This document shows, piece after piece, positions 11,229 through 39,265 of a stretch of DNA of 64,000 nt. Origin of the DNA: Catellatospora sp. KI3. Its GTDB lineage: Bacteria > Actinomycetota > Actinomycetes > Mycobacteriales > Micromonosporaceae. The notes below the pieces were generated by a model. It saw only the letters and a program-made list of their open reading frames with translations. It did not search any database and was not told the DNA's origin. The stretch lies in NCBI RefSeq assembly GCF_029948125.1, contig NZ_JASAMB010000016.1, positions 124,001 to 188,000 on the forward strand, read 5' to 3'. The translations under genes were made by a program, and so were the position numbers. Position 1 is the first letter of the stretch, and each line of letters begins with the position of its first letter.

Positions 11229-11265
11229 GGCGACCCCTCCAAGGAGCGGGACCGGATGGGGGGAG

Positions 11266-11296
11266 CGGCCCGGCACGGGTGGTCCGTGCCGGGCCG
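11266..11296 (-). terminator. Hairpin terminator of the mannanase gene
   Basis: A perfect 13-bp stem (11266-11278 with 11284-11296) with a five-base loop lies just after the mannanase stop codon and before the esterase start, both on the minus strand. This suggests the two genes are transcribed separately. Confidence 0.75.
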
Positions 11297-11318
11297 TCTG
11301 TTCAGGTGCTGACCTGGC

Positions 11319-12722
11319 TCAGCTCGCGGCGCAGGTCACCGCGGGGACGCTGTTGGTGCCGTTCCACGAGCCCAGGAAGCCCCAGGCGGCGCTGGCGCCC
11401 GCCGCCAGACTGCCGTTGTAGCTGACGTTGCGCGCGGTCACGGCGGCGCCGGACTGGGCCACCGTGGCGCTCCAGAACTGCGTGACGGTCTGGCCGTTGG
11501 CGTAGGTCCAGGTCACGGTCCAGCCGGTGATCGCCGACGAACCCGCGGTCACCTTCACTTCGGCCTGGAACCCGCCCTGCCAGGAGTTGAGGATCGTGTA
11601 CGTCGCGGAGCACGTCCGTCCGGGCAGCGGGCTCGTGCTCGGCGACGGGCTGGCCGACCGGGACGGGGACGGGCTGGGCGAGGCCGAGCGGCTGGGCGAC
11701 GGGCTCGGGGAGGCCGAGCGGCTGGCCGACGGCGACGGGCTGGCCGTACCGCCGTAGATCGTGGCCTCCTTCGAGGTGGCCGTGATGCCGTTCGGGCCGT
11801 TGAAGATCCGCAGACCCCAGGTGCTGAGCTGGGCGGGGTCGAAGTTGTTGGTCATGTCCAGGTACGGATCGTTGTTGCCCGCCCAGGACCAGCCCAGGTA
11901 GCCCAGGCCGCGGGCGTTGGCCTCGGCCAGGATGGTCTGGTCGTCGACGTTGTTGGACGAGCGCTGCCAGCCGAACTCGCCGATGACCAGCGGCCAGTTG
12001 TTGGTCTGGAACCGGTTGAGGTAGTCGGTGATCGAGGCGGCGGTGTTGAACACGTCGTACATGTGGATCGACAGGACCGTGTTGTGCTTGGTGTCGGCGT
12101 CGAGCACGGTCTGCGCGTTGTCGCGCATCACGTACTGCCAGTCCTGGCCCCAGTTCGGCGCGTCGACCATCAGCAGGTGCTCGAAACCGTTGGTGCGCAT
12201 CTTCTGGATCGCGCCGACGGTCGCGGCGGTCCACTGGGCGGCGTTGGTGTTGCCGATCGGCTCGTTGCCGATGTTGATGACGACGTAGCTCTCCTGGCCG
12301 ACCAGGTTCGCCTTCTGGCTGATCCAGTAGTTGACCGCCTCGTCGAGCGAGGCGGCGGCGCTGTCCTCGCCGTACCCGGTGGTGTCGTGCACCTCCAGGA
12401 CGCAGATCAGCTTGTTCTGCTTGCACAGGGTGATGATGGCCGGGACGTCGTTGGACGGCCCCCACCGCTTGCCGCTGCCGAGCACGACGCGGACGGAGTT
12501 GGCGCCCTTGGCCTTGATGTTGGCGAACGAGCTGGTCTGGCCGGTGAACCAGACGTGCTCGTGGTTGACGCCGCGCATGACGAACTTCTGGCCGTTGGCC
12601 TCGACGATGTCGCGGCCGCTGGTGTGCAGGCCGACGGCCGCGCTGGCGGGGCTGACGGCGACCAGTACTGACGCGGCGAACGCCACGACGGCGACGCCGG
12701 TGGCGGTGAGCAGTCTTCTCAT
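11319..12722 (-). CDS. Secreted endo-beta-1,4-mannanase (GH5) with CBM2
   Basis: A 467-residue secreted enzyme. Residues 1-29 are a signal peptide (cleavage near ASA-A). The GH5 barrel covers about 30-320 with RGVNHEH, the acid/base E154 (NIGNEPIGN) and the nucleophile E249 (VIGEFGW). These motifs match bacterial mannanases of the GH5_8 type, which cut beta-1,4-mannan backbones. A long Ser/Pro/Arg linker (about 325-368) repeats the block SPSPSPSRSA, and a family 2 binding module ends the protein. The direct repeats in the linker DNA (11640-11750) may vary in copy number. ATG 12722 is the only start in front of the signal peptide. The SGNH esterase with the same module lies downstream. Confidence 0.93.
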   Translation of the reverse strand: MRRLLTATGVAVVAFAASVLVAVSPASAAVGLHTSGRDIVEANGQKFVMRGVNHEHVWFTGQTSSFANIKAKGANSVRVVLGSGKRWGPSNDVPAIITLCKQNKLICVLEVHDTTGYGEDSAAASLDEAVNYWISQKANLVGQESYVVINIGNEPIGNTNAAQWTAATVGAIQKMRTNGFEHLLMVDAPNWGQDWQYVMRDNAQTVLDADTKHNTVLSIHMYDVFNTAASITDYLNRFQTNNWPLVIGEFGWQRSSNNVDDQTILAEANARGLGYLGWSWAGNNDPYLDMTNNFDPAQLSTWGLRIFNGPNGITATSKEATIYGGTASPSPSASRSASPSPSPSRSASPSPSPSRSASPSPSTSPLPGRTCSATYTILNSWQGGFQAEVKVTAGSSAITGWTVTWTYANGQTVTQFWSATVAQSGAAVTARNVSYNGSLAAGASAAWGFLGSWNGTNSVPAVTCAAS

Positions 12723-17536: not shown

Positions 17537-18160
17537 TCACATGACGGTGCCGGCGCGCGCCGCTCGGGCGTAGTCGCGCAGCTCCTGCGGCGCGTCGCGG
17601 TTGCGGGCCAGCCAGCGGTCCACTATCGCGGGGACGTGCTGCGGCACGTGGCGGTGGGCGTGGCCCAGCCCGTGCAGGGCGGCCCGCTGGCAGGGGACCG
17701 ACTCGAGTGCCAGCACGTCCTCCATGACGTCCAGCACGGTGTCCTCGGCCAGGTCGACGGGTGCGATCTCGAAGAACATGAAGCACACGTACTCCAGGTC
17801 CGACCGGCCCTCGACCTGCTCGACGAGGATCCGCGGGGCGAACACCTCGGCGAACAGCGTGGTGATCGCGCGCAGGCCGCGGGTGCGCAGCACCGTCGGC
17901 ACGTCCCTGCCGCCGAGCACGTGGATGTCGCCCCCGCCGACGAGTTGGACCAGACCCCGGCCGACCTGCTCGTCGCGGTAGCCGCCGAGCAGCGTGCCGG
18001 CCTGCCCGAACAGGTGCAGGATCCGTTCGGCGACGGCGACCGGGGTGTCGTGGTGGGCGTACCGCTCCAGCCACTCGGGCTCGGGTTCGTCCCACGGGGC
18101 GCCGCGTCGGTGGTACTCGTACTCGAACAGGTACGTCATCCAGGCGTCGAAACCGTCCAC
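17537..18160 (-). CDS. Conserved-looking protein of unknown function, divergent from thiosugar operon
   Basis: A 207-residue soluble protein with no membrane segment or signal peptide and no family I can name. It is helix-rich. It has an N-terminal aromatic/acidic stretch (WMTYLFEYEYHRRG, DEPEPEWLERY) and a C-terminal histidine-rich helix (ALHGLGHAHRHVPQHVPAIVDRWL) that recalls HEAT-like repeats. The start is taken as GTG 18160; an ATG at 18139 is the alternative. It is transcribed away from the ThiG-like gene with a 185-base gap between them, so it may share that control region and belong to the same system. Confidence 0.65.
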   Translation of the reverse strand: MDGFDAWMTYLFEYEYHRRGAPWDEPEPEWLERYAHHDTPVAVAERILHLFGQAGTLLGGYRDEQVGRGLVQLVGGGDIHVLGGRDVPTVLRTRGLRAITTLFAEVFAPRILVEQVEGRSDLEYVCFMFFEIAPVDLAEDTVLDVMEDVLALESVPCQRAALHGLGHAHRHVPQHVPAIVDRWLARNRDAPQELRDYARAARAGTVM

Positions 18161-18285
18161 GGATGTCGATTGAACTGCGCGGACCCGGGTCTGTCGAGGC
18201 GATTGCGCCCGGTTGGGCCCGCGGCTGGGCCGCCCCGATTCTGTCCCAGACGCCGGAATCGGGCCCTACGGAGCAATTTGGAAGA

Positions 18286-18301
18286 CGTCGCGGGCGCGAC
18301 G
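18286..18301. promoter_or_regulatory. Palindrome upstream of the thiosugar operon
   Basis: GTCGCG and CGCGAC arms around a GG centre (18287-18300), extended by one C and one G, form a 16-base palindrome 45-60 bases before the ATG at 18346. A second inverted repeat, CCCGATTC (18234-18241) with GAATCGGG (18256-18263), lies further up. The stretch after the palindrome (18306-18330) is unusually AT-rich for this genome. These may be an operator and promoter for the divergent pair; no regulator is identified. Confidence 0.35.
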
Positions 18302-18345
18302 GGCATGAAGAATTCATTAAAAGATTTCACGAGAGGTGGCGATAA

Positions 18346-19131
18346 ATGTCTGTGACCGCGCTGGAGTCCTCCGGTGTCCAGGAACCCTGGCTCAACCTCG
18401 GTGGGTACGAGCTGACCTCGCGGCTGCTGGTCGGCATCGAGCAGTACACGTCACCGAGCCTGGTGCGGCAGGTGCTGGAGGCGAGCGGTTCGCAGATCTT
18501 CATCACGACCGTCGACCCCGACAACAACCGGCCCAGCCTGCTGCTGTCCGATCTGGAGGACGAGCTGCCGCTGGAGCGCTACCTGTGGATCGGGACCACG
18601 TCGTTCGCCCGGTCGGGGGCCAGCGCCCTGCACACCGCGCACATCCTGCGCGACTCGTACGGCATCGACATCCTGAAGCTCGACGTCCGCGACGACGGCA
18701 ACCGCCCGGACAACAAGACCACCATCGAGATCGCCGAGGTGCTGCGCGCCGAGGGGTACAGCGTGCTGCCGTTCATCCTGCCGGACCTGGACGACGCCCG
18801 GGCGCTGCAGGACCTCGGCTGCTCGGCGCTGCGGATCATGGCCGCCCCGGTGGCGTCCGGCCGGGGCATCCCGGAGCCGCGCCGCATCCGCGAGATCATC
18901 GACGGGGTCGACCTGCCGGTGATCGTCGAGGGCGGACTCGGCACCGCGCGGCACGTCACGCTCGCCATGGAGATGGGCGCGGCCGGGGTGCTGGTCAACA
19001 CCGCCCTGGTCGACGCGAAGGAGCCGCTGCTGATGGCCGCCGCGATGCGCGCGGCCGTCGAGGCGGGCCGCCTGGCGCACCTCGCGGTCGCGATGCCCGG
19101 CGACGAGGACTCGGTCGGGGGTGACCGGTGA
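18346..19131 (+). CDS. ThiG-family synthase, probably thiosugar-forming (BexX-like)
   Basis: A 261-residue TIM-barrel protein of the ThiG family. ThiG makes the thiazole of thiamin from deoxyxylulose phosphate and a sulfur-carrier thiocarboxylate; its homologue BexX instead adds sulfur to a sugar phosphate. The Schiff-base lysine is present as K111 (DILKLDV). The phosphate-binding end PVIVEGGLGTARH and GVLVNTALVDAKEP is conserved. Two acidic positions differ from thiamin ThiG: KLEV reads KLDV (D113), and VDAG reads VEGG (E195). No ThiS, ThiO or ThiF gene is nearby; the next gene is a CysO-like carrier and the rest are glucan and trehalose enzymes. I therefore favour thiosugar synthesis over thiamin. 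ATG 18346 follows a GAGAGGTGG ribosome site. It overlaps the next gene by four bases. Confidence 0.85.
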   Translation: MSVTALESSGVQEPWLNLGGYELTSRLLVGIEQYTSPSLVRQVLEASGSQIFITTVDPDNNRPSLLLSDLEDELPLERYLWIGTTSFARSGASALHTAHILRDSYGIDILKLDVRDDGNRPDNKTTIEIAEVLRAEGYSVLPFILPDLDDARALQDLGCSALRIMAAPVASGRGIPEPRRIREIIDGVDLPVIVEGGLGTARHVTLAMEMGAAGVLVNTALVDAKEPLLMAAAMRAAVEAGRLAHLAVAMPGDEDSVGGDR

Positions 19132-19406
19132 TGGAGGTCCTGGTCGAGATCCCGACGGTGTTCCTGTCCCACACCAACGGCTCCAAGCGGGTCACCGCGT
19201 ACGGCGGCACGGTCGCCGAGGTGCTGGCCGACCTCGACTCGCGGCACCGGGGCATCCGGTCGCGGGTGGTCAACGCCGACGGCACCCTGAAGCGGTTCGT
19301 CAACGTGTACGTCAACGAGAAGGACGTCCGCGCCGCGGACTCGCTCGACACCCAGGTCGCCGACGGCGACTCCATCCTCATCCTGCCCGCGGTCGCGGGC
19401 GGGTGA
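19128..19406 (+). CDS. CysO/MoaD-family sulfur-carrier protein
   Basis: A 92-residue ubiquitin-like sulfur carrier ending in the required Gly-Gly (LPAVAGG). The sequence VEIPTVFLSHTNGSKRV, FVNVYVNEKDVR and DGDSILILPAVAGG closely follows CysO, the cysteine-synthesis carrier of mycobacteria. The C-terminal glycine would be adenylated and converted to a thiocarboxylate by a MoeZ-type enzyme, which is not encoded here. The usual partners of CysO, the Mec peptidase and CysM, are also absent. Placement between the ThiG-like and phosphatase genes suggests it is the dedicated sulfur donor for the ThiG-like enzyme. GTG 19128 gives a GTGA overlap; ATG 19131 is equally possible. Confidence 0.92.
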   Translation: MMEVLVEIPTVFLSHTNGSKRVTAYGGTVAEVLADLDSRHRGIRSRVVNADGTLKRFVNVYVNEKDVRAADSLDTQVADGDSILILPAVAGG

Positions 19407-20103
19407 GCGCACCGCTGTTCGACAGCGCCCTGTTCGACCTGGACGGGGTGCTGATCGACACGCAGGACGCGATCGTCGCGCTCTGGCGCGACCTGGCCGC
19501 CGGCCACGGATTCGAGCTGAGCGGGCACGACGTCGACAGCCACGTGCTGGGCTGCTCGCCGGAGCACACGGTGCGCGCGGTCTTCGGCGGCCTGGACGAC
19601 GGCGGCCGGGAGCGGGTGCTGGCCGCGGTCCGCGCCGCCGAGCCGGAGCTGGCGTTCAAGCCGGTGGCCGGGGCCGCCGAGCTGGTCACCGCGCTGCGCG
19701 CGGCCGGGGTGCGGCTGGGCCTGGTGACGGGCGCCTCGGCGTACCGGGCCGGGCGGGTGCTGGCCGAGCTGGGCGTGCGGGACGCGTTCGGGGCGTGGGT
19801 GACCTGGGGCGAGGTCGAGCACGGCAAGCCCGCCCCCGACTGCTACGAGCTGGGCGCGCGCCGGCTGGGCTGCGTACCGGCGCGGTGCCTGGTGTTCGAG
19901 GACGCGCCCAGCGGGGTGACCGCGGCGGTGAGCGCGGGCGCGGTGTGCGTCGGCGTCGGCGCCGATCCGCGCCTGGCCGCCAGCGGCGCGGTCTGGACGG
20001 TGCCCGACCTGGCCGCGGTCGGCACCCGGCCGGGCGATCAGGGCGTGGTCCTGGCGCTGTCGGCGGTGCCGGTGGCCGTGCTGCGCCGCGAAGGAGCGGG
20101 GGC

Positions 20104-20107
<4 letters not shown>
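19403..20107 (+). CDS. HAD-superfamily sugar phosphatase / beta-phosphoglucomutase-like
   Basis: A 234-residue haloacid dehalogenase-type enzyme with a C1 cap. Motif I is FDLDGVLID (nucleophile D12, acid D14), motif II is LVTGAS, motif III lysine is in EHGKPAPD and motif IV is VFEDAPSG. These features fit sugar-phosphate phosphatases or beta-phosphoglucomutase; sequence alone does not separate them. In this operon the sensible role is removing phosphate from the thiosugar phosphate, so that a glucan transferase can use it as an acceptor. The GTG at 19403 overlaps the carrier gene's stop by four bases. Confidence 0.9.
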
Positions 20108-21497
<1,390 letters not shown>

Positions 21498-21501
<4 letters not shown>

Positions 21502-23000
21502 GTCTGGTCCGACGCAGCGGCATCCTGCTGCACCCCAGTTCGCTGCCCGGCCGCTACGGCATCGGCGAGTTCGGCCCGGCCGCCGCCGAGTGGCTGGAGT
21601 TCCTGGCCGGGGCCGAGCAGTCGGTATGGCAGATGCTGCCGCTCAACCCGGTCGACGGCGACGGGTGCCCGTACCAGTCGTACGCGACGATGGCCGGGAA
21701 CACGCTGTTCGTCAGCGTGGACCGGCTGCTGGACGCCGGGCTGCTCGACCGGTCCGACCTGGCCGACCTGCCGTCGCTGCCCGGCGGCGCGGTGGACTAT
21801 CCGGCGGCGGCGCAGGTCAAGGACAAGCTGCTCGCGCGGGCGTTCGCGAACTTCACCCCGACCGCCGACAGCGAGCGGTTCGTACGCGAGCAGAGCTGGT
21901 GGCTGGACGACTACGCCCACTACATGGCGCTGCGGCGCCGGTACGGCTGGGCCTGGACGCAGTGGCCGCAGCCGCTGGCCCGCCGCGACCCCGGCGCGCT
22001 GGCCCGCTCGGCCGAGGAGCTGGCCCGCGAGCTCGACTACCACCGGTTCACCCAGTACCTGTTCGGCAGCCACTACGCGGCGCTGCGGGAGCAGGCCCGG
22101 ACGCTGGGCATCGAGATCCTGGGCGACGTCGCCATGTTCGTCGGCACGCACAGCGCCGACGTGTGGGCCCGGCCGGACCTGTTCCAGCTCGACGCCGCCG
22201 GTCGGCCCACCTTCGTGGCCGGCTTCCCGCCGGACGAGTTCAGCCGCGACGGCCAGGTCTGGGGCAACGCCCTGTACCGCTGGGACGCGATGGCGGCCGA
22301 GGACCACCGGTGGTGGATCGACCGGGTACGCCGGATGGGGGACCTGTTCGACATCGTGCGGCTGGACCACTTCCGCGGCTTCCACCGCTACTGGGCGGTG
22401 CCCGTGCCCGGCGACGCCACCCAGGGCCACTGGCAGGACGGTCCGGGCGGCGACCTGTTCACGGCGATCCGCAAGGAGCTCGCCGACATCGACATGATCG
22501 CCGAGGACCTCGGCCCGCCGTCGCAGGACGTGCAGCGGATGCGCATCGACGCGGGCATCCCCGGCATGCGGCTGCTGCAGTTCGCCTTCTCCGGCGACGA
22601 GAACCAGCACCTGCCGCACCACTACCCGGCCGACTGCGTCGCCTACACCGGCACCCACGACAACGACACCACCACCGGCTGGTGGGACACGGCCACCGCC
22701 GACGAGCGCGACCGGGTGGAGCTGTACCTGGGCGGGGTCGGCGACGGCATCTGCTGGTCGTCCGCGCGGGCGATCTTCGGCTCGGTGGCGTACCTGGCGG
22801 TGCTGCCCATGCAGGACGTGCTGCAGCTGGGCAGCGAGGCCCGGCTGAACACCCCCGGCCGGGCCGCCGGGAACTGGCAGTGGCGGCTGGACGAGCGGTC
22901 GCTCACGCCCGGGGTCGAGTTCCGGCTGCGCCGCCTGACCGAGGTGTACGGCCGCGACCGGCTGGCCACGCAGCGGCGGGCGCGGGGGTTCACCGGCTGA
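21498..23000 (+). CDS. malQ: 4-alpha-glucanotransferase (GH77, MalQ)
   Basis: A 500-residue disproportionating enzyme of the short amylomaltase type. It starts RRSGILLHPSSLPGRYGIGEFG, as usual for GH77. Catalytic residues line up with Thermus amylomaltase: nucleophile D290 (RLDHFRGF), acid/base E336 (IAEDLG) and D388 (GTHDNDTT). MalQ moves maltosyl chains from one glucan to a glucose or glucan acceptor. That is the property needed to attach a free thiosugar at the reducing end of a glucan. The start is TTG 21498, in a TTGA overlap with glgA, with GAGAAGGGG upstream; no ATG or GTG fits the family N-terminus. Confidence 0.95.
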
Positions 23001-25309
23001 TGGCGGCTCCCTCCTCGACCTACCGGCTCCAGTTCGGACCGCACCTGAGCCTGACCGGGGCCGCGCCGGTGGCCGACTACCTGGCCGCGCTGGGCGTCGG
23101 CGCGCTCTACAGCTCGCCGCTGCTGGCCTGCGCGCCGGGCTCGACACACGGCTACGACCTGGTCGACCCGGCGCGGACCGACGCCGACCGGGGCGGCGAC
23201 GACGCCCGGCGCGACCTGGCCGACCGGCTGCGCCGGGCGGGGCTGGGCTTCGTGGTCGACGTCGTCTGCAACCACATGGGCATCGCCGACCCGCCCGCCA
23301 ACCCGTGGTGGTGGGGTGTCCTGCGGGACGGCCGCGACTCGCCGTACGCGGGGTTCTTCGACATCGACTGGGCGGCGGGGCCGCTGCTGATCCCGGTGCT
23401 GGCCGACGACGGCGACGGCGGGGCGGCCGCCCTGGCCGACCTCGCGGTCGACGGCGATGAGCTGCGCTACTACGAGCACCGGTACCCGCTGGCGCCCGGC
23501 ACCGGCGGCGGCGCCCCCGGGCAGGTGCACCAGCGCCAGCACTACCGGCTGGTGTCCTGGCGGCGCGGCATGGCCGAGCTGACGTACCGGCGCTTCTTCA
23601 ACATCGACACGCTGGCGGGGCTGCGGACCGAGGATCCGCGCGTCTTCGCCGCGGTGCACGCCGAGGTGCTGCGCTGGGTGCGCGAGGGCCAGGCCACCGG
23701 CCTGCGCATCGACCACCCCGACGGCCTGGCCGACCCCGGCGGCTACCTGCGCCGCCTGCGCGCCGCCGCGCCCGGCGCCTGGATCGTGGTGGAGAAGGTC
23801 ACCGCCGTCGGCGAGCCGCTGCCCGCCTCCTGGCCGGTCGACGGCACGACCGGCTACGACGCGCTGCGCGAGGTCTGCGGCGTCTTCGTCGACCCCGGCG
23901 GCCGCGACCTGTTCGAGGCCAGGCAGCGGGCCTCGGCCGCCGAGGTGGACGCGGCCTGCCGCCGGCAGATCGCGCTGACGCTGCTGCCGATGGAGGTGGG
24001 CCGCGTCGCCGGGCTCATCGGCGCCCTGCTGCCCGGCGAACCCGCGCCCCGGTGCCACGACGCCGCGCTGGAGCTGCTGACCGCGTTCCCGGTCTACCGC
24101 AGCTACCTGCCCGAACACCGGTGGGCGCTGGACCGGGCCGTCGCGACCGCGCGGGGCCGCCGCCCGGACCTGGCCCCGATCCTGGCGGCCGTCGCCGCGC
24201 GGATGACCGCCGAGCCGACCGGCGAGCTCGCCGTCCGGATCCAGCAGACCACCGGCCCGATCATGGCCAAGGGGGTCGAGGACACCGCCTTCTACCGGTA
24301 CCACCGCCTGGTCTCGCTCAACGAGGTCGGCGGCGACCTGGAGCGCTTCGCCGTGCCGCCGGGCGAGCTGCACGCGGCCAACACGGCCCGCCAGGCCACC
24401 TGGCCGCACACCATGACCACCCTGTCCACCCACGACACCAAGCGCTCGGAGGACGTACGGGCCCGGCTGGCGGTGCTCAGCGAGGTGCCCGGGCAGTTCC
24501 TCGCCGCGATGGACGGCTGGGAGGCGCGCTGCCCGCTCGGCTACCCGGAGCTGGCGCCGCTGGCCTGGCAGACCCTCGTCGGCGCCTGGCCGATCGAGCC
24601 CGAGCGGCTCAGCGGCTTCCTGTTCAAAGCCGCCCGCGAGGCGCGGCAGCACACCGACTGGACCGATCCCGACCCGGACCTGGAGCGCGCGGTGACGGGC
24701 TGGCCCCAGCGGCTGGCGGCGCACGCCGAGGTGGCCGCCGACGTCGCCCGGTTCGTCGACCGGATCCGGGACGCGGGCTGGTCGAACTCGCTCGGGCAGA
24801 AGCTGCTGCAGCTGGCCGGGCCGGGCGTGCCCGACGTGTACCAGGGCACCGAGCTGTGGGACTGGTCGCTGGTCGACCCGGACAACCGGCGCCCGGTGGA
24901 CTTCGCGGCCCGCCGCGAGCTGCTGGACAAGCTCGACAGCGGCTGGCGGCCCGACGTCGACGACACCGGCGCGGCGAAGCTGCTCGTGGTCGCCACCGTG
25001 CTGCGGCTGCGCCGCGACCGGCCCGAGCTGTGGCCCGGCTACGCACCCGTGTACGCCGAGGGCCCGGCCGCCGGCCACCTCGTCGGCTTCGCCCGCGGCC
25101 CGCGCCGCGACGTGGTGGCCGTGGCGACCCGGCTGCCGGTGGGGCTGTCGGCGGCGGGCGGCTGGGCGGACACCGTGCTGCCGCTGCCGTACGGCACCGG
25201 CGAATGGACCGATCTGATCAGCGGCGAACCGGTCGACACCGACCCGCCCCGGGTCGCCGAGCTGCTGCGGCGATACCCGGTGGCCCTACTGGTACGGGGG
25301 AAGCATTGA
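23000..25309 (+). CDS. treY: Maltooligosyltrehalose synthase (GH13_26, TreY)
   Basis: A 769-residue enzyme with the family hallmark STYRLQF at the N-terminus. Catalytic residues are nucleophile D238 (LRIDHPDGL), acid/base E265 (VVEKV) and D479 (STHDTKRSEDVRARL). TreY rearranges the reducing-end alpha-1,4 bond of a maltooligosaccharide into the alpha,alpha-1,1 bond of a trehalose unit. If the reducing-end unit is a thiosugar, the product would be a maltooligosyl thio-trehalose. The ATG at 23000 shares one base with the malQ stop (TGATG). The usual neighbour glgX/treX (debranching) is not present; malQ and glgA take its place. Confidence 0.96.
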   Translation: MAAPSSTYRLQFGPHLSLTGAAPVADYLAALGVGALYSSPLLACAPGSTHGYDLVDPARTDADRGGDDARRDLADRLRRAGLGFVVDVVCNHMGIADPPANPWWWGVLRDGRDSPYAGFFDIDWAAGPLLIPVLADDGDGGAAALADLAVDGDELRYYEHRYPLAPGTGGGAPGQVHQRQHYRLVSWRRGMAELTYRRFFNIDTLAGLRTEDPRVFAAVHAEVLRWVREGQATGLRIDHPDGLADPGGYLRRLRAAAPGAWIVVEKVTAVGEPLPASWPVDGTTGYDALREVCGVFVDPGGRDLFEARQRASAAEVDAACRRQIALTLLPMEVGRVAGLIGALLPGEPAPRCHDAALELLTAFPVYRSYLPEHRWALDRAVATARGRRPDLAPILAAVAARMTAEPTGELAVRIQQTTGPIMAKGVEDTAFYRYHRLVSLNEVGGDLERFAVPPGELHAANTARQATWPHTMTTLSTHDTKRSEDVRARLAVLSEVPGQFLAAMDGWEARCPLGYPELAPLAWQTLVGAWPIEPERLSGFLFKAAREARQHTDWTDPDPDLERAVTGWPQRLAAHAEVAADVARFVDRIRDAGWSNSLGQKLLQLAGPGVPDVYQGTELWDWSLVDPDNRRPVDFAARRELLDKLDSGWRPDVDDTGAAKLLVVATVLRLRRDRPELWPGYAPVYAEGPAAGHLVGFARGPRRDVVAVATRLPVGLSAAGGWADTVLPLPYGTGEWTDLISGEPVDTDPPRVAELLRRYPVALLVRGKH

Positions 25310-26517
25310 CGACGACGACCACCACCCGGCTCGCGGTGCCGGACACCCGCCGCCGACCGATGGCGGTGCTGTTCACCGGCTCGGCCGCCACCAACGTGTC
25401 CATGGTGGGCGCCAGCACGGTCAGCACCCTGCTCGGCGCGCAGCTGCTCGGTCCGGTGTGGAGCGGCATACCCAACGCGGCCGGGGTCATCGGCTCGGCG
25501 GTCGGCACGCTGACCCTGGCCGCGGTGATGGCCCGGCACGGCAGCCGGATCGCGCTGGTGGTCGGGTACGCGGTCGCGGTCGCCGGGGCGGTGGTCGCCG
25601 GGTACGCCGTCGCGGCCGACTCGGCGACCGTGCTGATGACCGGCATGCTGCTGCTCGGCATCGGCAACGGCGGCGCGCAGCTGTCGCGCTACTGCGCGGC
25701 CGACCTGTACCCGCCGGACCGCAAGGGCTTCGCGGTCGGGCTGCTCGTCTGGGGCGGCACCGTCGGTGCGCTGATCGGCCCGAACCTCATCGAGCCGCTC
25801 ACCCGGCTGGCCGGTGGGCTGGGGCTGCGGCCGTACGCGGGACCGTATCTGCTGGCACTGGTCTGCGCCGCGGTGGCGGGCCTGGCCTCGACGGCGCTGC
25901 CCGCCACCCGGACCCGCCGCGGCGGCGTGGCGGCCGGACCGGCCCCCGCCCGCGTCTGGCGCCTGCCGGTGGTGCGCGCGGCGATCGTGTCGATGGCCGG
26001 CGGCCAGGTCGCCATGGTCGGCGTGATGACCATGACGCCGCTGCAGATGGAGATGCACGGCCACGGGCTGGGCGCGGTCGGCGCGGTGCTGAGCGCGCAC
26101 CTGCTGGGCATGTTCGCGCTCGCGCCGCTGTCCGGGCACCTCGCCGACCGGTTCGGCGCCCGGACCACGATCGTGCTGGGCATCGGGGTGATCCTGGCCT
26201 CGGCCGCGGCCGCGCTGTGGCCCGCGACGGCCGCGCTCTACGTGGCCCTGTTCCTGCTCGGGTACGGCTGGAACCTGACCTTCGTCGGCGGCAGCAGCCT
26301 GCTCACCCAGGCGCTCACCCCCGACGAGCGCCTGCACGTCCAGGGCGGCGTCGACGCGATCGTGTGGACCGCCTCGGCCGTGTCCAGCATCGGCGCCGGC
26401 ATGCTGCTCGGCGTGGTCGGCTACCCGGCCGTGGTCGCCTGCTCGGCGGCGGTGGTGCTGCTCCCGCTGCTGTTCCTGTTCGGCCACCGGGCCAGCGCCC
26501 CGGCGGCGGGCCGATGA
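25306..26517 (+). CDS. MFS transporter within the thiosugar/trehalose operon
   Basis: A 403-residue major facilitator protein with 12 predicted membrane segments and two halves joined by a loop near residue 200 (PATRTRRGGVAAGPAPARVW). The second half contains the repeat signature GHLADRFGARTTI. It belongs to the drug/sugar exporter groups, with substrate not deducible by sequence. Trehalose operons do not normally include such an exporter, so its position between treY and treZ suggests that the final product is secreted. Start is TTG 25306 in a TTGA overlap with treY, after a GGGGGAAG ribosome site. Confidence 0.9.
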   Translation: MTTTTTTRLAVPDTRRRPMAVLFTGSAATNVSMVGASTVSTLLGAQLLGPVWSGIPNAAGVIGSAVGTLTLAAVMARHGSRIALVVGYAVAVAGAVVAGYAVAADSATVLMTGMLLLGIGNGGAQLSRYCAADLYPPDRKGFAVGLLVWGGTVGALIGPNLIEPLTRLAGGLGLRPYAGPYLLALVCAAVAGLASTALPATRTRRGGVAAGPAPARVWRLPVVRAAIVSMAGGQVAMVGVMTMTPLQMEMHGHGLGAVGAVLSAHLLGMFALAPLSGHLADRFGARTTIVLGIGVILASAAAALWPATAALYVALFLLGYGWNLTFVGGSSLLTQALTPDERLHVQGGVDAIVWTASAVSSIGAGMLLGVVGYPAVVACSAAVVLLPLLFLFGHRASAPAAGR

Positions 26518-28301
26518 CCAGCGCACCGGAAAGGCCGGGGACGGAGGACACGGTGACGGCGCGGACGTACAGGTTCTCGGTATGGGCACCGCTGCCCGCC
26601 CGCGTGGCCGTCCGGGTCGCCGGGCAGGACCACGCCATGGCCGCCGGCGCCGACGGCTGGTGGCACGCCGACGTGCCGGACGTGCCCGCCGACGCGGACT
26701 ACGCGTTTCTGCTCGACGACGACCCCACCCCGCTGCCCGATCCCCGCTCGGCCTGGCAGCCCGACGGCGTGCACGGCCCGACCCGCCGCTACGACCACGG
26801 CGCCCACCGGTGGCAGGACGCGCACTGGCACGGGCGGCCGCTGGCCGGCGGCGTCGTCTACCAGCTGCACGTGGGCACCTTCACCGAGCAGGGCACCTTC
26901 GACGCCGCGGCCGAGCGCCTGGACCACCTGGTGCGGCTGGGCGTCGACTTCGTGCAGCTGCTGCCGGTCAACGCGTTCGAGGGCGAGGCCGGCTGGGGCT
27001 ACGACGGCGTGCTCTGGTTCGCCGTGCACCAGCCGTACGGCGGCCCCGACGCGATGAAGCGCTTCGTCGACGCCTGCCACCGGCACGGCCTCGGGGTGCT
27101 GCTCGACGTGGTGCACAACCACCTCGGCCCGGCGGGCGCCTACCTGCCCAGGTTCGGGCCCTACTTCGCCGACCAGACCAAGTGGGGACCGGCGCTGAAC
27201 CTCGACGGCCCCGGCTCCGACGAGGTCCGCCGGTACGTGCTGGACAACGCGCTGGCCTGGCTGCGCGACTTCCACCTCGACGGGCTGCGCCTGGACGCCG
27301 TGCACGCGCTGCGCGACGGCCGGGCCGTGCACCTGCTGGAGGAGCTGTCGGTCGCCGTCGACGCGCTGTCGGCGCACCTCGGCCGCCCGCTGGCGTTGCT
27401 GGCCGAGTCCGACCAGAACGACCCGCGCCTGGTCACCGCGCGCGAGGCGGGCGGGTTCGGGCTGACCGCGCTGTGGAACGACGACGTGCACCACAGCCTG
27501 CACGCCGCGCTGACCGGCGAGCGGCACGGCTACTACGCCGACTACGGCCCGCTGCGGGACCTGGCCGACGCGCTGCGACAGGTGTTCCTGTTCACCGGGC
27601 GGCACTCGACGTTCCGCGGGCGCGGCTACGGGCGGCCGGTGGACACGGCCCGCATCCCGGCCAGCCGGTTCCTGGTCTACGTGCAGTCGCACGACCAGGT
27701 CGGCAACCGGGCCGAGGGGGACCGGATCGGGGCGGCGCTGTCGCCGGGGCTGCTCGGGTGCGCGGCGGCGATCGTGCTCTGCTCGCCGTACACGCCGATG
27801 ATCTTCATGGGGGAGGAGTGGGGCAGCCGGGGGCCGTGGGAGTTCTTCGTCTCGTTCCACGACGAGGGGCTGCGCGCCGCGGTCCGCCAGGGGCGGCGGC
27901 GTGAGCTGGGCGCGACCTGGGGGCTGGAGGTCTCGTCGGACCCGGGCGACCCCAAGACGTTCCTGGCGTCGAAGCTGCGCTGGTCGGAGCTGGCCGAGCC
28001 GGAGCACCAGCGGATCGCGGAGCTGTACCGCGACCTCATCGCGCTGCGCCGCGCCCGCCCCGAACTGACCGACCCCAGGCTGGACCGGGTGGGCGTGGAC
28101 GTCGACGAGGCGCGGCGGTGGCTGGTGGTGCGGCGGGGTGCGGTGAGCCTGGTGTGCAACCTCGCCGCCGAGCCGCAGCGGGTGCCGCTGGACGCGCCCC
28201 CGCGCGAGCTGCTGCTGTCCTCCGGGCCGGCGGACTGGCACGGCAGTGGGCTGGAGTTGGCGGCCGAGTCCTTCGCGGTGGTGGTGACCGGGGTCGCGTG
28301 A
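26514..28301 (+). CDS. treZ: Maltooligosyltrehalose trehalohydrolase (GH13_10, TreZ)
   Basis: A 595-residue enzyme: an N-terminal beta-sandwich (FSVWAPLPARVAVRV), then the GH13 barrel with VVYQLHVGTFTEQGTF, the nucleophile D261 (LRLDAVHAL), acid/base E298 (LLAESDQND) and D394 (QSHDQVGNRAEGDRI), then a C-terminal sandwich. TreZ cuts the alpha-1,4 bond next to the trehalose unit and frees the disaccharide. It closes the operon and would release trehalose or its sulfur analogue. ATG 26514 overlaps the MFS stop by four bases; a GTG at 26553 behind GGAGGA is an alternative start that would trim 13 non-conserved residues. Confidence 0.96.
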   Translation: MTSAPERPGTEDTVTARTYRFSVWAPLPARVAVRVAGQDHAMAAGADGWWHADVPDVPADADYAFLLDDDPTPLPDPRSAWQPDGVHGPTRRYDHGAHRWQDAHWHGRPLAGGVVYQLHVGTFTEQGTFDAAAERLDHLVRLGVDFVQLLPVNAFEGEAGWGYDGVLWFAVHQPYGGPDAMKRFVDACHRHGLGVLLDVVHNHLGPAGAYLPRFGPYFADQTKWGPALNLDGPGSDEVRRYVLDNALAWLRDFHLDGLRLDAVHALRDGRAVHLLEELSVAVDALSAHLGRPLALLAESDQNDPRLVTAREAGGFGLTALWNDDVHHSLHAALTGERHGYYADYGPLRDLADALRQVFLFTGRHSTFRGRGYGRPVDTARIPASRFLVYVQSHDQVGNRAEGDRIGAALSPGLLGCAAAIVLCSPYTPMIFMGEEWGSRGPWEFFVSFHDEGLRAAVRQGRRRELGATWGLEVSSDPGDPKTFLASKLRWSELAEPEHQRIAELYRDLIALRRARPELTDPRLDRVGVDVDEARRWLVVRRGAVSLVCNLAAEPQRVPLDAPPRELLLSSGPADWHGSGLELAAESFAVVVTGVA

Positions 28302-28338
28302 CCGCCTGGCGGTCGGACCGGCGTGCGATGCTGGGTGG

Positions 28339-28752
28339 ATGAACCGGGACGATCTCGTCCGGCTGCGCCGGGCCCGCGACCGGATGGACCGCGACTTCGC
28401 CCAGCCGCTGGACGTGCCCGCGCTGGCCCGCGAGGCGCTGATGTCGGCGGGCCACTTCTCCCGCAGCTTCCGGGCCGCCTTCGGCGAGACGCCGTACAGC
28501 CACCTGATGACCAGGCGGATCGAGCGGGCCAAGGCGCTGCTGCGCCGGGGCGACCTGAGCGTCACCGACGTGTGCTTCGCCGTCGGCTGCACCTCGCTCG
28601 GCTCGTTCAGCTCCCGCTTCACCGAACTGGTCGGCGAGTCGCCGAGCGCGTACCGGGCGCGCGAGCATGACACCGGGTCGGCGATCCCGGCCTGCGTGGC
28701 CAAGATGATGACCCGGCCGGTACGCGGCGGGCAGGCTCCCGCCGGGTCCTGA
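28339..28752 (+). CDS. Short AraC-family DNA-binding regulator
   Basis: A 137-residue protein consisting almost only of the AraC/XylS double helix-turn-helix domain (VPALAREALMSAGHFSRSFRAAFGETPYSHLMTRRIERAK, given here in part; second motif VTDVCFAVGCTSLGSFSSRF). There is no ligand-binding domain. Such short AraC proteins are commonly paired with a VOC/glyoxalase gene, as here. It starts 37 bases after treZ; the gap is large compared with the overlapping operon before it, so it is probably a separate unit. Confidence 0.9.
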   Translation: MNRDDLVRLRRARDRMDRDFAQPLDVPALAREALMSAGHFSRSFRAAFGETPYSHLMTRRIERAKALLRRGDLSVTDVCFAVGCTSLGSFSSRFTELVGESPSAYRAREHDTGSAIPACVAKMMTRPVRGGQAPAGS

Positions 28753-28757
28753 CGCCG

Positions 28758-28763
28758 TATGGT
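28758..28763 (+). promoter_or_regulatory. Probable -10 box (TATGGT) of the VOC gene
   Basis: TATGGT fits TANNNT and lies seven bases before the GTG at 28771, which supports that codon, not the ATG at 28759, as the start. Confidence 0.35.
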
Positions 28764-28770
28764 GAGCTGC

Positions 28771-29181
28771 GTGGACATCAGGGTTTCGCACTGCTTCATC
28801 ACCGTGGACGACCATGAGCGGGCGCTCGGCTTCTACCGTGACGCGCTCGGGCTCGAAGTCCGCAACGACGTCAGCTTCGAGGGCATGCGCTGGGTGACGC
28901 TGGTGCCGCCGAGCCAGCCGGAACTCCAGATCACGCTGGAGACGGTCGGCGCCGGACCGGGCGCGTCGCCCGACGACCGGCGGCGGATGTCGGAGCTGCT
29001 CGCCAAGGGTCTGCTGCGGGGGCTCATCTTCGCCACCGACGACGTCGACGCCGCCTTCGACCGCATCCAGGCCACCGGCGCCGAAGTCCTCCAGGAGCCG
29101 ATGGACCAGCCCTACGGCGTACGCGACTGCGCCTTCCGCGACCCCGCCGGCAACATGGTCCGACTCAACCAGACCAAGTAA
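28771..29181 (+). CDS. VOC-family protein (glyoxalase/bleomycin-resistance fold)
   Basis: A 136-residue vicinal-oxygen-chelate protein with the paired beta-alpha-beta-beta-beta units: ISxCFITVDDHERALGFYRDALGLEV pattern at the start and GLIFATDDVDAAFDRIQATGAEV, then RDCAFRDPAGNMVRLNQ at the end. Such proteins bind metals or ligands and include glyoxalases and drug-binding resistance proteins; the exact role is open. The start is taken as GTG 28771. It probably forms a functional pair with the AraC regulator just upstream. Confidence 0.88.
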   Translation: MDIRVSHCFITVDDHERALGFYRDALGLEVRNDVSFEGMRWVTLVPPSQPELQITLETVGAGPGASPDDRRRMSELLAKGLLRGLIFATDDVDAAFDRIQATGAEVLQEPMDQPYGVRDCAFRDPAGNMVRLNQTK

Positions 29182-31397: not shown

Positions 31398-31699
31398 CTG
31401 GGGCCTCCCTGGCATCGCTTTCGATGCCAGGGTCGCGGCCCGCCCGCGCCGTCGCCAGGTCCGGCGGCCACTTGCCGAGAGTCTGCCGACGGTGCCGACA
31501 GATTGCCAACGGATCGCCCGTCCCGGTGCCAGATTGGCGATTGACAGCGCCCGCTGCGTGACTGTCCGGGCGGGTACTGTCTGGTTCGCGTCCAATGTGC
31601 TGTCCGCTATCGATGGTCGCGTTGACCGGGCAGCTGAATGGGGTCATCGTCGTAATCCGACAGATTCTAGGGCCGCGCGGAGCATCGACGGGGGCGAAG
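31398..31699. other. Divergent intergenic region between SARP and NB-ARC genes
   Basis: These 302 bases contain no convincing gene. The only clear structure is the pair of SARP-type heptamer repeats at 31473-31510. The right part (31520-31690) is less GC-rich than the genes around it and probably holds the promoter of the NB-ARC gene. Confidence 0.6.
31473..31510 (+). promoter_or_regulatory. SARP-type direct heptamer repeats, two 11-base-spaced pairs
   Basis: TGCCGAG (31473), TGCCGAC (31484), TGCCGAC (31493) and TGCCAAC (31504) form two pairs, each with an 11-base period. That period is the known signature of SARP binding sites, where one protein contacts each helical turn. The natural candidate is the SARP encoded at 30669-31397, controlling itself, the divergent NB-ARC gene or both. 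Confidence 0.6.
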
Positions 31700-33946
31700 A
31701 TGGCCGACTACACGAAGCGCTGGTGGCCCGCTGACGGCCCGGTGCTGGAGCTGCTGTCGTACCTGGACAAGCTGCACGCCTCGGCCGGTCGGCCGACGAT
31801 GGTCGCCATCGCCCGCGCGGTGCACCTGGAACCGGCCACCGTGCACCAGTTCTTCACCGGCAAGCGGCTGGTCGGCCAGGCGCACCTGCGCAACCTCGCC
31901 CTGCACCTGGACGGCGACCCCGAGCTGGCCGAGCAGCTGCGCCGCGCCGCGGTGCCCGCCTGGCAGGACCTGCGCGCCGGGCGGCCGCCGGCCGAGCCCG
32001 CGCCGCCGGCGCACCAGGAGCGGGGGACGCGCGGTTGGACGGTCGCGCCAGACAGCACCGAGGGCAGCGAGGTCATCTTCTACGAGGCGGCGGTGAACCG
32101 GCCCAACCGGCCGCGGCTGCTGGTCGGCCGGGCCGACCTGATCGAGGCGGTGGGCGGGCGGCTGGACGCGGGGGCGCGGCTGCTGCTGCACGGCCTGGGC
32201 GGCAGCGGCAAGACCGCGCTGGCGGCCACCATCGCCGACCGGCGCATCGAGGCGGGCAAGGGGCCGTACCTGTGGGTACGGGTCGGCACCACCGGCGCCG
32301 ACCTGGTGCTCGACGCGATGGCCCGCTGCCTGGCCACGGTCACCGGCCGCCGCTGGACCGGCACCAGCGCGGGCGACGGCAGGCTGCTGGCCGTGGCCGG
32401 CGCCATCACCGCCAGCGGCGCCACCCTGTGCGTGCTGGACGACGCGTGGGAGGCGGGCACCCTGCACACGGTGCTGCAGGCGGTGCCCGACCACGTCGGC
32501 GTGCTGGTCACCTCCCGGTTCCGGATCGGCGTGGCCGACCAGGTCGCCGTCGACGGGCTGGACCCGGTCGCGGCGGCGGGGCTGCTGGCCCACCACGCCC
32601 AGCAGGACTCCTACACCGCCCGCCCCGACTCCTACGAGCTGTGCGCCTACCTGGCGTACCAGCCGTACCTGATCGAGATCGCGGGTCACCGGCTGCGGCA
32701 GTACGCGCTGACCCCCGCCGAGCTGCGGCGGCAGCTGGAGACGCCCACCGAGATCGAGATGCCGGCCGGGTTCGCCGCGCCGGGCCGGGAGAACGGGCGG
32801 CGCCTGCTCGACACCACCTACGAGGCGCTGCCGCCGGACGCGCGGGCGGTGCTCGGCGCGGTCGGCGGCCTGTTCAGCGGCGTGGTCACGCCGGGTCTGG
32901 TCGAGCGCTGCCTCGGCTTCGGCGCCAACCGGACCCTGGCCGCGCTCAACGCCCTGGTCGACGCGAGCTTCGCCAAGCGGGCGGCGGGGACCGCGGCGTA
33001 CGCGTTCCACGACCTGACCGTCGGCTACGCCCGGGTGGTGCTGCACGGCGACCGCGACCCGGGCGCCGCGATCACGGCGGTGCGGGCGTTCGTCGAGGCG
33101 TACCGGGCCGAGCACCAGGTCATCGCCCTCGACCTCGACAACGTGATCGCGGCCGCCGAGCGTGCGCAGAGCGCGGCGGTCGAGGACTTCCTGGCGATCG
33201 TGACCACCCTGGCCGAGGGCGGCTACCTGGACACCTACGGCCACCTTGCCCTGCTGAACCTCGTGGACGCCGCGATCGCCCGGCTGTGGGAGCGCCACGA
33301 CGTGCGGCGGCTGCACCTGCTGCTGAGCAAGCGGGGCAACGCCTGCTACAACCAGCGCGAGTTCGCGCAGGCCGTGCACTACTACCAGCAGGCGCTGGCG
33401 CTGGCGCCCACCCCGGCCCGCCGGGCGGTGCTGCTCAGCGTCATCGGCAAGTCGTACGCCGAATCCGGGCAGCGGGCCGAGTCCGACGAGGCGTTCGCGC
33501 AGGCGTACGCGATCGCCGCGGCGCAGGACGACGAGGCGGCCCGGGTGCGGGTGCTGGAGGCGCACACGGTGGCCGCGTTCCGCCAGCGCGACTACGACCG
33601 GGTGCGTGAACTGGCCGAGCGGGGGGTGGCGCTGAGCCGGCAGTCCGGCAACCGCGCGTCGGAGGCGTACTTCCTCAACAACCTGGGCACCGCCCACTTC
33701 CACCTCGGCGTGGAGGCCAGTCTCGGCTACCACCGGATGGCTATGGACATCGGCACGGAGCTGGACAACCAGCGGGTGCTCGCCCTCACCCACTACAGCG
33801 TCGGGATCGACCACCACGCGCTGGAGGACTTCGACGAGGCGCGGGCCCACCTCACCGAGGCCAGGCGCCTGCACGAGCGGCTCGGCGAGACCGGCGCGTC
33901 TGCGGATCTGCGAGCGGTGATGCAGCGGTTCGGCTACCTGAACTGA
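31700..33946 (+). CDS. HTH / NB-ARC / TPR STAND ATPase regulator
   Basis: A 748-residue signal-transduction ATPase. An N-terminal segment (about 1-75; TMVAIARAVHLEPATVHQFF) looks like an Xre-type helix-turn-helix. The NB-ARC module follows with Walker A at about 165-172 (GLGGSGKT), Walker B-like LCVLDDAWEAG and VLVTSRFRIG. The C-terminal 250 residues are TPR repeats (QREFAQAVHYYQQALALAP and following). The family works as a ligand-operated switch that oligomerises on ATP binding. ATG 31700 was chosen as it starts the conserved N-terminus. It diverges from the SARP gene, so together they split the domains that AfsR carries in one chain. Confidence 0.88.
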   Translation: MADYTKRWWPADGPVLELLSYLDKLHASAGRPTMVAIARAVHLEPATVHQFFTGKRLVGQAHLRNLALHLDGDPELAEQLRRAAVPAWQDLRAGRPPAEPAPPAHQERGTRGWTVAPDSTEGSEVIFYEAAVNRPNRPRLLVGRADLIEAVGGRLDAGARLLLHGLGGSGKTALAATIADRRIEAGKGPYLWVRVGTTGADLVLDAMARCLATVTGRRWTGTSAGDGRLLAVAGAITASGATLCVLDDAWEAGTLHTVLQAVPDHVGVLVTSRFRIGVADQVAVDGLDPVAAAGLLAHHAQQDSYTARPDSYELCAYLAYQPYLIEIAGHRLRQYALTPAELRRQLETPTEIEMPAGFAAPGRENGRRLLDTTYEALPPDARAVLGAVGGLFSGVVTPGLVERCLGFGANRTLAALNALVDASFAKRAAGTAAYAFHDLTVGYARVVLHGDRDPGAAITAVRAFVEAYRAEHQVIALDLDNVIAAAERAQSAAVEDFLAIVTTLAEGGYLDTYGHLALLNLVDAAIARLWERHDVRRLHLLLSKRGNACYNQREFAQAVHYYQQALALAPTPARRAVLLSVIGKSYAESGQRAESDEAFAQAYAIAAAQDDEAARVRVLEAHTVAAFRQRDYDRVRELAERGVALSRQSGNRASEAYFLNNLGTAHFHLGVEASLGYHRMAMDIGTELDNQRVLALTHYSVGIDHHALEDFDEARAHLTEARRLHERLGETGASADLRAVMQRFGYLN

Positions 33947-33959
33947 TCCGCGCGATCGA

Positions 33960-33990
33960 GGCCGCCCGACCGGATCCCGGTCGGGCGGCC
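33960..33990. terminator. Hairpin terminator between convergent genes
   Basis: A perfect 14-bp stem (33960-33973 with 33977-33990) with a three-base loop separates the NB-ARC gene from the convergent VWD gene. No T-tract follows on either strand. Confidence 0.78.
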
Positions 33991-34001
33991 GGATCGGCGG
34001 G

Positions 34002-35888: not shown

Positions 35889-36070
35889 CGGAAGTCCTTT
35901 CCGGACTGGACGGCAGCCCCGGGTGAGGCTGCCCGCAACCAGAGGACGGCTCGACGCGCTACCCGGACAACATCCGTGCCGCTTCCGAATCAGCTCCGGC
36001 CTGGTCGTCAATCCGACGAACCGCGACAATGACCTTGCTGTCAGACATCCGGCGAACCCTTGGAGCGACG

Positions 36071-39112: not shown

Positions 39113-39131
39113 ACCCCGGCTGAGCCGCGAC

Positions 39132-39164
39132 GGCGGCCGTGCGGACGCATGCCGTACGGCCGCC
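39132..39164 (+). terminator. Hairpin terminator after the GH38 gene
   Basis: A 13-bp stem (39132-39144 with 39152-39164, one G-U pair) with a seven-base loop lies 20 bases after the alpha-mannosidase stop. Confidence 0.7.
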
Positions 39165-39265
39165 CTCAGTCCACTGTGGCCATTCGATCCGGGTGGCGGG
39201 GCAACCCGCGTCCGGCCCTCAAGCATCAACTTGTGGGCGGTTTGTCGCGTGGACGGGGGACAAGG

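What the first reader, a model, noticed from the sequence alone, without database searches (positions are those of the whole stretch)
17537..28301. Candidate thio-trehalose (thiosugar disaccharide) biosynthetic operon
Seen: eight genes (ThiG-like, CysO-like carrier, HAD phosphatase, glycogen synthase, MalQ, TreY, MFS, TreZ) overlap end to end. Known: ThiG homologue BexX makes a 2-thiosugar phosphate using sulfur-carrier thiocarboxylates; MalQ can use glucose as acceptor, so the acceptor ends up at the reducing end; TreY converts the reducing end to a 1,1-linkage; TreZ frees the disaccharide. Inference: the acceptor is a thiosugar, and the product is a sulfur analogue of trehalose that the MFS protein exports. 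I know of no described operon with this combination, but could not search.
Basis: partly seen in the sequence, partly recalled or inferred. Interest (0 to 1): 0.93.

Follow-up and report, generated by a model that had tools for sequence, protein, structure and literature searches.

The report
Operon for a sulfur-containing trehalose
A soil actinomycete carries a compact eight-gene operon that most likely replaces one oxygen of the sugar trehalose with sulfur and exports the product, by a route different from the one known to build the same kind of sugar in an antibiotic.

Summary
The operon is real: eight + strand genes at 18346-28301, overlapping 1 or 4 nt at every junction: BexX-type 2-thiosugar synthase, CysO-like carrier, HAD phosphatase, GlgA, MalQ, TreY, MFS, TreZ. 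The first protein is BexX-like, not ThiG (319 vs 130 bits); the genome has its own thiG. The order BexX-CysO-HAD-GlgA-MalQ-TreY-MFS occurs in 6 genomes of two genera. Among 354 family genomes, operon-type TreY was found only in those 6 and forms its own clade. Independent support: in 7 of 18 BexX-bearing genomes of another family, BexX stands with a related MFS and a GT20 (trehalose-phosphate-synthase family) enzyme; one of them has BexX identical, 240/240, to the crystallised BexX. So two unrelated trehalose-type enzymes pair with one thiosugar synthase and one exporter family. Best reading: free 2-thiotrehalose made from maltooligosaccharides. No product was observed; TreZ is in the operon in only 2 of 6 genomes (the other four carry it elsewhere); 14 of 27 BexX-like loci have neither TreY nor GT20 nearby.

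The parts
18346..19131 (+). BexX-type 2-thiosugar-phosphate synthase (ThiG superfamily)
   Evidence: Pfam ThiG 191 bits; PDB 4n6e 'Putative thiosugar synthase' 319 bits vs ThiG at most 130 bits; 155/240 identical to 4n6e; K111, D113, E195 in 27/27 BexX-like sequences
19128..19406 (+). CysO-like sulfur carrier, C-terminus -AVAGG (start GTG 19128 or ATG 19131)
   Evidence: Pfam ThiS; closest PDB chain 4n6e_B, from the same entry as BexX, then 3dwg_C; C-terminus
19403..20107 (+). HAD-family sugar phosphatase
   Evidence: Pfam Hydrolase/HAD_2; best NCBIfam PGMB-YQAB and sugar phosphatase models, below their cut-offs; a related HAD gene stands by BexX in 4 loci without TreY or GT20
20104..21501 (+). 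GlgA, GT5 ADP-glucose-type alpha-1,4-glucan synthase
   Evidence: TIGR02095 413 bits, over cut-off; PDB glycogen synthases
21498..23000 (+). MalQ, 4-alpha-glucanotransferase (GH77)
   Evidence: Pfam GH77 518 bits; TIGR00217 over cut-off
23000..25309 (+). TreY, maltooligosyltrehalose synthase; the only TreY over cut-off in the genome; operon-specific clade
   Evidence: TIGR02401 776 bits; genome search; tree 100/100; catalytic motifs kept
25306..26517 (+). MFS transporter, probable disaccharide exporter (TTG start overlapping the TreY stop)
   Evidence: Pfam MFS_1; start; nearest homologues outside the operon, among 594 called genes, are the MFS of the BexX-GT20 loci
26514..28301 (+). TreZ, maltooligosyltrehalose trehalohydrolase; the only TreZ found in the genome
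   Evidence: TIGR02402 712 bits; PDB 1eh9/3vgb E 8e-127; genome search at E 1e-60
17537..18160 (-). Divergent ORF of unknown function upstream; possibly a regulator, not shown to belong
   Evidence: no Pfam or NCBIfam match; 75% identical ORF at the same place in C. tritici

Best explanation
The operon makes and exports free 2-thiotrehalose (alpha-D-glucosyl 1,1-linked to 2-deoxy-2-thio-D-glucose). Steps, all inferred from homology: (1) a ThiF/MoeZ-like enzyme encoded elsewhere charges the operon's CysO with sulfur as a C-terminal thiocarboxylate; (2) the BexX-type enzyme forms an imine with glucose 6-phosphate through Lys111 and transfers the sulfur to C2, giving 2-thioglucose 6-phosphate; (3) the HAD enzyme removes the phosphate; (4) GlgA makes alpha-1,4-glucan from ADP-glucose and MalQ moves glucosyl chains onto O4 of 2-thioglucose, so that the thiosugar becomes the reducing end; (5) TreY turns that last alpha-1,4 bond into an alpha,alpha-1,1 bond; (6) TreZ cuts off the terminal disaccharide (in Micromonospora the housekeeping TreZ would do this); (7) the MFS protein exports it. 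Shown here: the gene identities, their conservation, the dedicated TreY clade, and the parallel BexX-MFS-GT20 arrangement. Not shown: any reaction or product.
For: BexX identity: 319 vs 130 bits; 27 BexX-like rows apart from 7 ThiG rows at 100/100; Lys kept 27/27, Asp113 and Glu195 in 27/27 where ThiG has Glu and Asp in 7/7; own thiG with a ThiS-family gene just upstream. Sulfur supply: own CysO closest to the carrier in the BexX crystal entry; a strong ThiF-family gene in 7 of 7 genomes searched, outside the operon (its rhodanese domain was not tested). Conserved unit: order in 6 genomes of 2 genera, with no flank DNA shared between the window and L048 or L050 at blastn E 1e-15. Dedicated TreY: 66-100% identity in 6 of 354 genomes, the same 6; next best about 60% (list cut, best first); clade 100/100. 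TreY absent from 9 of 9 other genomes of the genus, while the 4 Micromonospora have a second, housekeeping TreY next to TreZ. Convergence: BexX-MFS-GT20 in 7 of 18, their MFS being the next-best relatives of the operon MFS (E 7e-34 to 3e-11; every other non-operon gene E >= 0.008). One of them (G1117) has BexX 240/240 identical to 4n6e and KS, KS and ACP genes about 20 kb away. A bacterial MalQ accepts C2-altered glucose (mannose, GlcNAc, 2,3-dideoxyglucose; PMC3789958, passages). TreY forms acarbose component C, so it can act on a modified substrate (PMC4479805, passages).
Against: No product, activity or expression evidence. TreZ is in the operon in only 2 of 6 genomes. 14 of 27 BexX-like loci have neither TreY nor GT20 in the stretch of about 20 kb read, so BexX does not imply trehalose. 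The GT20 arrangement is not one clade: 6 of 7 group together, L105 sits with two loci that have neither gene. The link from BexG2 to 2-thiotrehalose 6-phosphate is recalled; the paper is not held. Why both GlgA and MalQ are needed is not settled. MFS direction is unknown. Catalytic motifs of TreY do not reveal the acceptor. CysO of G597 and G620 ends GGAG, so it would need trimming.
Confidence: 0.7

Rival explanations
1. The operon makes a 2-thiosugar trehalose-type product, but not the free disaccharide: for instance maltooligosyl-2-thiotrehalose, or 2-thiotrehalose later attached to another molecule as in BE-7585A.
For: TreZ is not in the operon in 4 of 6 genomes; in the bex-like locus (G1117) type II PKS genes lie about 20 kb from BexX.
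Against: The four Micromonospora have a TreZ elsewhere; in the window the operon holds the only TreZ found in the genome and an MFS; the eight genes include no obvious tailoring enzyme.
Confidence: 0.13
2. The glycogen/trehalose genes make ordinary trehalose, and the sulfur genes do something separate (for example free 2-thioglucose); the linkage is incidental or only co-regulates osmoprotection and sulfur metabolism.
For: TreY and TreZ pass curated cut-offs of the ordinary enzymes; BexX-HAD pairs exist without TreY or GT20 (L054, L111, L112, L118).
Against: The host has three GT20 (OtsA-type) genes over cut-off; four Micromonospora carry a second TreY only in this operon although they have TreY-TreZ elsewhere; BexX pairs with an unrelated trehalose-type enzyme in another family.
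Confidence: 0.1
3. The thiosugar enters differently: GlgA or another enzyme loads activated thioglucose, or the thiol itself is glycosylated by MalQ or TreY to give an S-linked disaccharide.
For: A GlgA is kept in 6 of 6 operons; a thiol at C2 is a possible acceptor atom (inference).
Against: No nucleotidyltransferase among the eight genes; in the first case the released disaccharide would be the same 2-thiotrehalose, as trehalose is symmetric.
Confidence: 0.05
4. The first gene is a thiazole synthase paralogue serving thiamine.
For: Pfam ThiG match, 191 bits.
Against: BexX at 319 bits vs ThiG 130; separate clade 100/100; a 345-bit thiG elsewhere in the genome with a ThiS-family gene just upstream.
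Confidence: 0.02

Closest known systems
BexX and the bex (BE-7585A) thiosugar genes of Amycolatopsis (PDB 4n6e/4n6f)
   Same: Orthologous thiosugar synthase (155 of 240 residues identical); carrier-protein sulfur; related MFS and a trehalose-type partner enzyme (GT20) in the locus whose BexX equals 4n6e
   Different: bex uses its glycosyltransferase on sugar phosphate with UDP-glucose (recalled) and, per PMC6225789 (passage), has no sulfur carrier of its own; the window has its own CysO, a phosphatase and a GlgA-MalQ-TreY-TreZ route, and no PKS was seen in the 28 of 47 called window genes scanned by Pfam
TreY-TreZ trehalose pathway
   Same: Same enzyme families, over curated cut-offs; catalytic motifs kept
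   Different: Separate TreY clade (66-71% between its three lineages, 55-59% to housekeeping TreY), embedded with sulfur genes; no debranching enzyme (TreX) among the eight genes
Trehalosamines (2-, 3-, 4-aminotrehalose natural products)
   Same: C2-substituted trehalose from actinomycetes; 2-trehalosamine is a natural growth inhibitor (PMC11019547, passages)
   Different: Amine rather than thiol; their biosynthesis was not compared here
TreY-made acarbose component C
   Same: TreY acting on a modified oligosaccharide (PMC4479805, passages)
   Different: A by-product, not a dedicated pathway; no sulfur

Membership tests
BexX-type 2-thiosugar synthase | Closer to BexX than to ThiG | tested here: met
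   319 vs 130 bits; clade apart from ThiG at 100/100
BexX-type 2-thiosugar synthase | Imine-forming lysine (BexX Lys110, recalled) | tested here: met
   Lys111 in 27/27 BexX-like and the same column in 7/7 ThiG
BexX-type 2-thiosugar synthase | Converts glucose 6-phosphate with carrier thiocarboxylate | not testable with these tools
   needs an enzyme assay
ThiG (thiazole synthase) | ThiG-type Glu and Asp at the active site (their role is recalled) | tested here: not met
   Asp113 and Glu195 in 27/27 where ThiG has Glu and Asp in 7/7
bex (BE-7585A) gene cluster | GT20-type partner beside BexX | tested here: not met
   none of the eight genes is GT20; the genome's three GT20 genes over cut-off lie on other contigs
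bex (BE-7585A) gene cluster | Type II PKS nearby | tested here: inconclusive
   none in the 28 of 47 called window genes scanned; the rest and the flanking contig were not scanned
Maltooligosyltrehalose synthase (TreY) | TIGR02401 over cut-off; GH13 catalytic motifs | tested here: met
   776 vs 498.65 bits; RIDHPDG, VVEKV, THDTKR
Maltooligosyltrehalose trehalohydrolase (TreZ) | TIGR02402 over cut-off | tested here: met
   712 vs 538.8 bits
Housekeeping TreY of the family | Falls in the clade of TreY genes standing beside TreZ | tested here: not met
   six operon TreY and six housekeeping TreY are separate clades, each 100
CysO sulfur carrier | ThiS-family protein with C-terminal GG | tested here: met
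   GG at the end in 4 of 6 operons, window included, GGAG in 2

The most novel reading that the evidence does not exclude
A stand-alone pathway for free, exported 2-thiotrehalose: a modified trehalose built on the maltooligosaccharide route with a dedicated TreY, evolved separately from the GT20 route of the bex type, with both routes sharing one thiosugar synthase and one exporter family. The product would be the sulfur counterpart of the natural growth inhibitor 2-trehalosamine, possibly a trehalose mimic or an extracellular thiol.
Probability: 0.6. Interest if true: 0.85.

Novelty: new variant of a known kind. Interest (0 to 1): 0.76.

Why it matters
Sulfur sugars are rare in nature, and their known routes are few (general knowledge). 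A compact operon with a predicted product of exact formula (C12H22O10S) makes a specific, cheap test possible by mass spectrometry. If true, it shows TreY and TreZ recruited to make something other than trehalose, two unrelated enzymes converging on one linkage around a thiosugar, and a candidate new trehalose-analogue natural product. No paper describing such an operon came up in the term searches made (open-licence PMC papers only).

Tried and rejected
Thiazole synthase for thiamine: rejected on score, tree, residues and presence of a true thiG. Ordinary trehalose pathway: judged unlikely because of three GT20 genes and the second TreY in Micromonospora. The first gene caller missed most operon genes, probably because it took the longest ORF; it was replaced by a start-optimised caller, whose starts are approximate. 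In one search three housekeeping TreY genes were read on the wrong strand; one search repeats the comparison correctly, and only one search is used. Operon-specific TreY substitutions (28 positions; e.g. Cys90 where the others have Pro, Met93 where they have Ala or Val, Asn201 where they have Ala) were noted but not interpreted, as no substrate-bound coordinates were at hand. A promoter/terminator scan of 18100-18400 found nothing. Paper searches for thiotrehalose, thiosugar or TreY-with-sulfur gene clusters gave no such operon (open-licence PMC only); the 2014 and 2010 BexX papers are not held, so BexG2's activity is recalled. Structure prediction was not used: the families are clear by sequence. 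The named-genome scan works by conserved peptides and reached only two close relatives.

Full report
What is there. The window lies in an 8.2-Mb genome with the same genus code as G487, whose contig has the length of the matching Catellatospora tritici NEAU-YM18 contig (260,849). Eight + strand genes run from 18346 to 28301 with 1- or 4-nt overlaps at every junction. Pfam and NCBIfam identify a ThiG-superfamily protein, a ThiS-family carrier, a HAD phosphatase, GlgA, MalQ, TreY, an MFS transporter and TreZ; GlgA, MalQ, TreY and TreZ pass curated NCBIfam cut-offs.

The first protein is BexX-like, not ThiG. Against solved structures it scores 319 bits to 4n6e ('Putative thiosugar synthase') and at most 130 to ThiG chains; 155 of 240 residues are identical to 4n6e. 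A tree of 27 BexX-like and 7 ThiG sequences separates the two at 100/100. In all 27 the lysine is kept, and two positions that are Glu and Asp in 7 of 7 ThiG are Asp113 and Glu195; that these positions are catalytic is recalled. The genome has a 345-bit thiG elsewhere with a ThiS-family gene just upstream. The carrier's closest solved chain is 4n6e_B, from the BexX crystal entry; a strong ThiF-family gene (MoeZ/MoeB-like; rhodanese domain not tested) lies outside the operon in 7 of 7 genomes searched.

Conservation. BexX-like proteins (E <= 1e-45) occur in 9 of 354 genomes of the window's family, own genome included, in 18 of 390 of family f15, probably Pseudonocardiaceae, and in 1 of 394 of a class sample, the own genome. 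In an order sample of 397, searched at E <= 1e-20, three matches stand above the ThiG background: own 100%, 65% and 47%, the rest at most 39% in the part of the list shown. I read 18 to 20 kb around each of the 27 (9 + 18; L005). In 6 of them (2 Catellatospora, 4 Micromonospora) the order BexX-CysO-HAD-GlgA-MalQ-TreY-MFS is kept; TreZ follows only in the two Catellatospora. Flanking DNA of the window is not shared with L048 or L050 at blastn E 1e-15. A search with the operon TreY finds a match at E <= 1e-120 in 255 of 354 family genomes; six matches reach 66-100% identity, in those same six genomes, and the next best are about 60% (two candidates per genome were scored, and the list was cut, best first). 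In a tree the six form a clade at 100/100 beside six housekeeping TreY.

Complementary distribution. In the window's genome no other TreY over cut-off and no other TreZ were found, and 9 of 9 other genomes of its genus lack TreY at E 1e-60, so there the pathway comes with the sulfur genes. The four Micromonospora have TreY next to TreZ elsewhere plus the operon TreY; their operons lack TreZ. This fits a dedicated TreY with a TreZ that can act in trans, but a product other than the free disaccharide is not excluded there.

An independent arrangement. In 7 of the 18 (L045, L104, L105, L107-L110) BexX stands on one strand with an MFS and a GT20 enzyme. The MFS are the next-best relatives of the operon MFS among 594 called genes (E 7e-34 to 3e-11; every other non-operon gene E >= 0.008). 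The GT20 of L107 is about 29-31% identical to the window genome's three GT20 proteins. In L107 BexX is identical to 4n6e over 240 of 240 residues, and KS, KS and ACP genes lie about 20 kb away, so this is the bex cluster or its twin. I recall that BexG2 of that cluster couples 2-thioglucose 6-phosphate and UDP-glucose to 2-thiotrehalose 6-phosphate (Sasaki 2010; not held); that the GT20 of L107 is BexG2 is inferred. PMC4784017 (passages) describes BexX as turning glucose 6-phosphate to 2-thioglucose; PMC5321127 (passages) names MoeZ and carrier proteins of primary metabolism as its partners; PMC6225789 (passage) says the bex cluster lacks its own carrier. In the BexX tree the six TreY-type rows are one clade (100/99), and the GT20 type is not: six of seven group together (99/96), L105 sits with two loci that have neither gene.

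Mechanism. The thiosugar phosphate would be made as in bex, but dephosphorylated and fed into glucan metabolism. A bacterial MalQ accepts C2-altered sugars with an equatorial O4 (mannose, GlcNAc, 2,3-dideoxyglucose; PMC3789958, passages), so 2-thioglucose is a reasonable acceptor. TreY can act on a modified oligosaccharide (acarbose component C; PMC4479805, passages), and the operon TreY keep the catalytic motifs in 6 of 6. TreZ then releases 2-thiotrehalose. The steps are inferences; the gene facts are shown.

Results against. 14 of the 27 BexX-like loci have neither TreY nor GT20 in the stretch read (4 with a HAD gene, 10 others; tblastn E 1e-8), so the family makes other things too; in one of these, L052, a TreS-maltokinase-GlgB run lies about 5 kb from BexX on the other strand, perhaps by chance. 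TreZ is in 2 of 6 operons. Two of six carriers end GGAG and would need trimming. No metabolite is known here.

Novelty. Term searches of open-licence PMC papers found no such operon. The unit 2-thiotrehalose is known (recalled); the route, the carrier and TreY belonging to the operon, and the stand-alone exported product appear new. Natural 2-trehalosamine inhibits mycobacterial growth (PMC11019547, passages), which suggests, without testing it, what a C2-thio trehalose might do.

Noticed in passing
L048:7627-7908 and L049:7609-7890: The operon CysO of two Micromonospora ends AVAGGAG instead of AVAGG, so a protease would have to expose the GG before sulfur loading.
   Followed up: no
L054, L111, L112, L118: BexX with a neighbouring HAD gene but no TreY or GT20: beside a GT2 and ABC transporter (L054), sugar transporters (L111, L118) or a LacI regulator (L112); probably other thiosugar products.
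   Followed up: partly
L052:8895-13026 and L053:9769-13169: BexX-like genes beside NB-ARC/TPR proteins, in L052 with an EAD8-trypsin protein between; an unexpected context for a thiosugar synthase.
   Followed up: no
L052:2148-7416: TreS, maltokinase-like and GlgB genes in a row about 5 kb from a BexX-like gene, on the other strand.
   Followed up: partly
L046, L115, L116, L117: A divergent BexX-like gene (46-48%) follows a conserved membrane protein of about 575-584 aa (87-88% identical) in four genomes of one genus code.
   Followed up: no
window 23000-25309: 28 positions where the six operon TreY agree and differ from six housekeeping TreY and 6lcv, including Cys90 and Met93 in the DVVCNHMG motif and Asn201.
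   Followed up: partly
window 28306-29181: An AraC-type HTH protein and a glyoxalase-family protein follow TreZ; present in C. tritici, not found in the four Micromonospora loci.
   Followed up: partly
window 31613-42274: Two large NB-ARC/TPR proteins (31613-33946; 39266-42274, the second with BTAD and Trans_reg_C domains), with a GH38 alpha-mannosidase between them at 36071-39112.
   Followed up: no
window 10089-12722: Cellulase (GH5) and GDSL lipase genes, each with a CBM2 domain.
   Followed up: no
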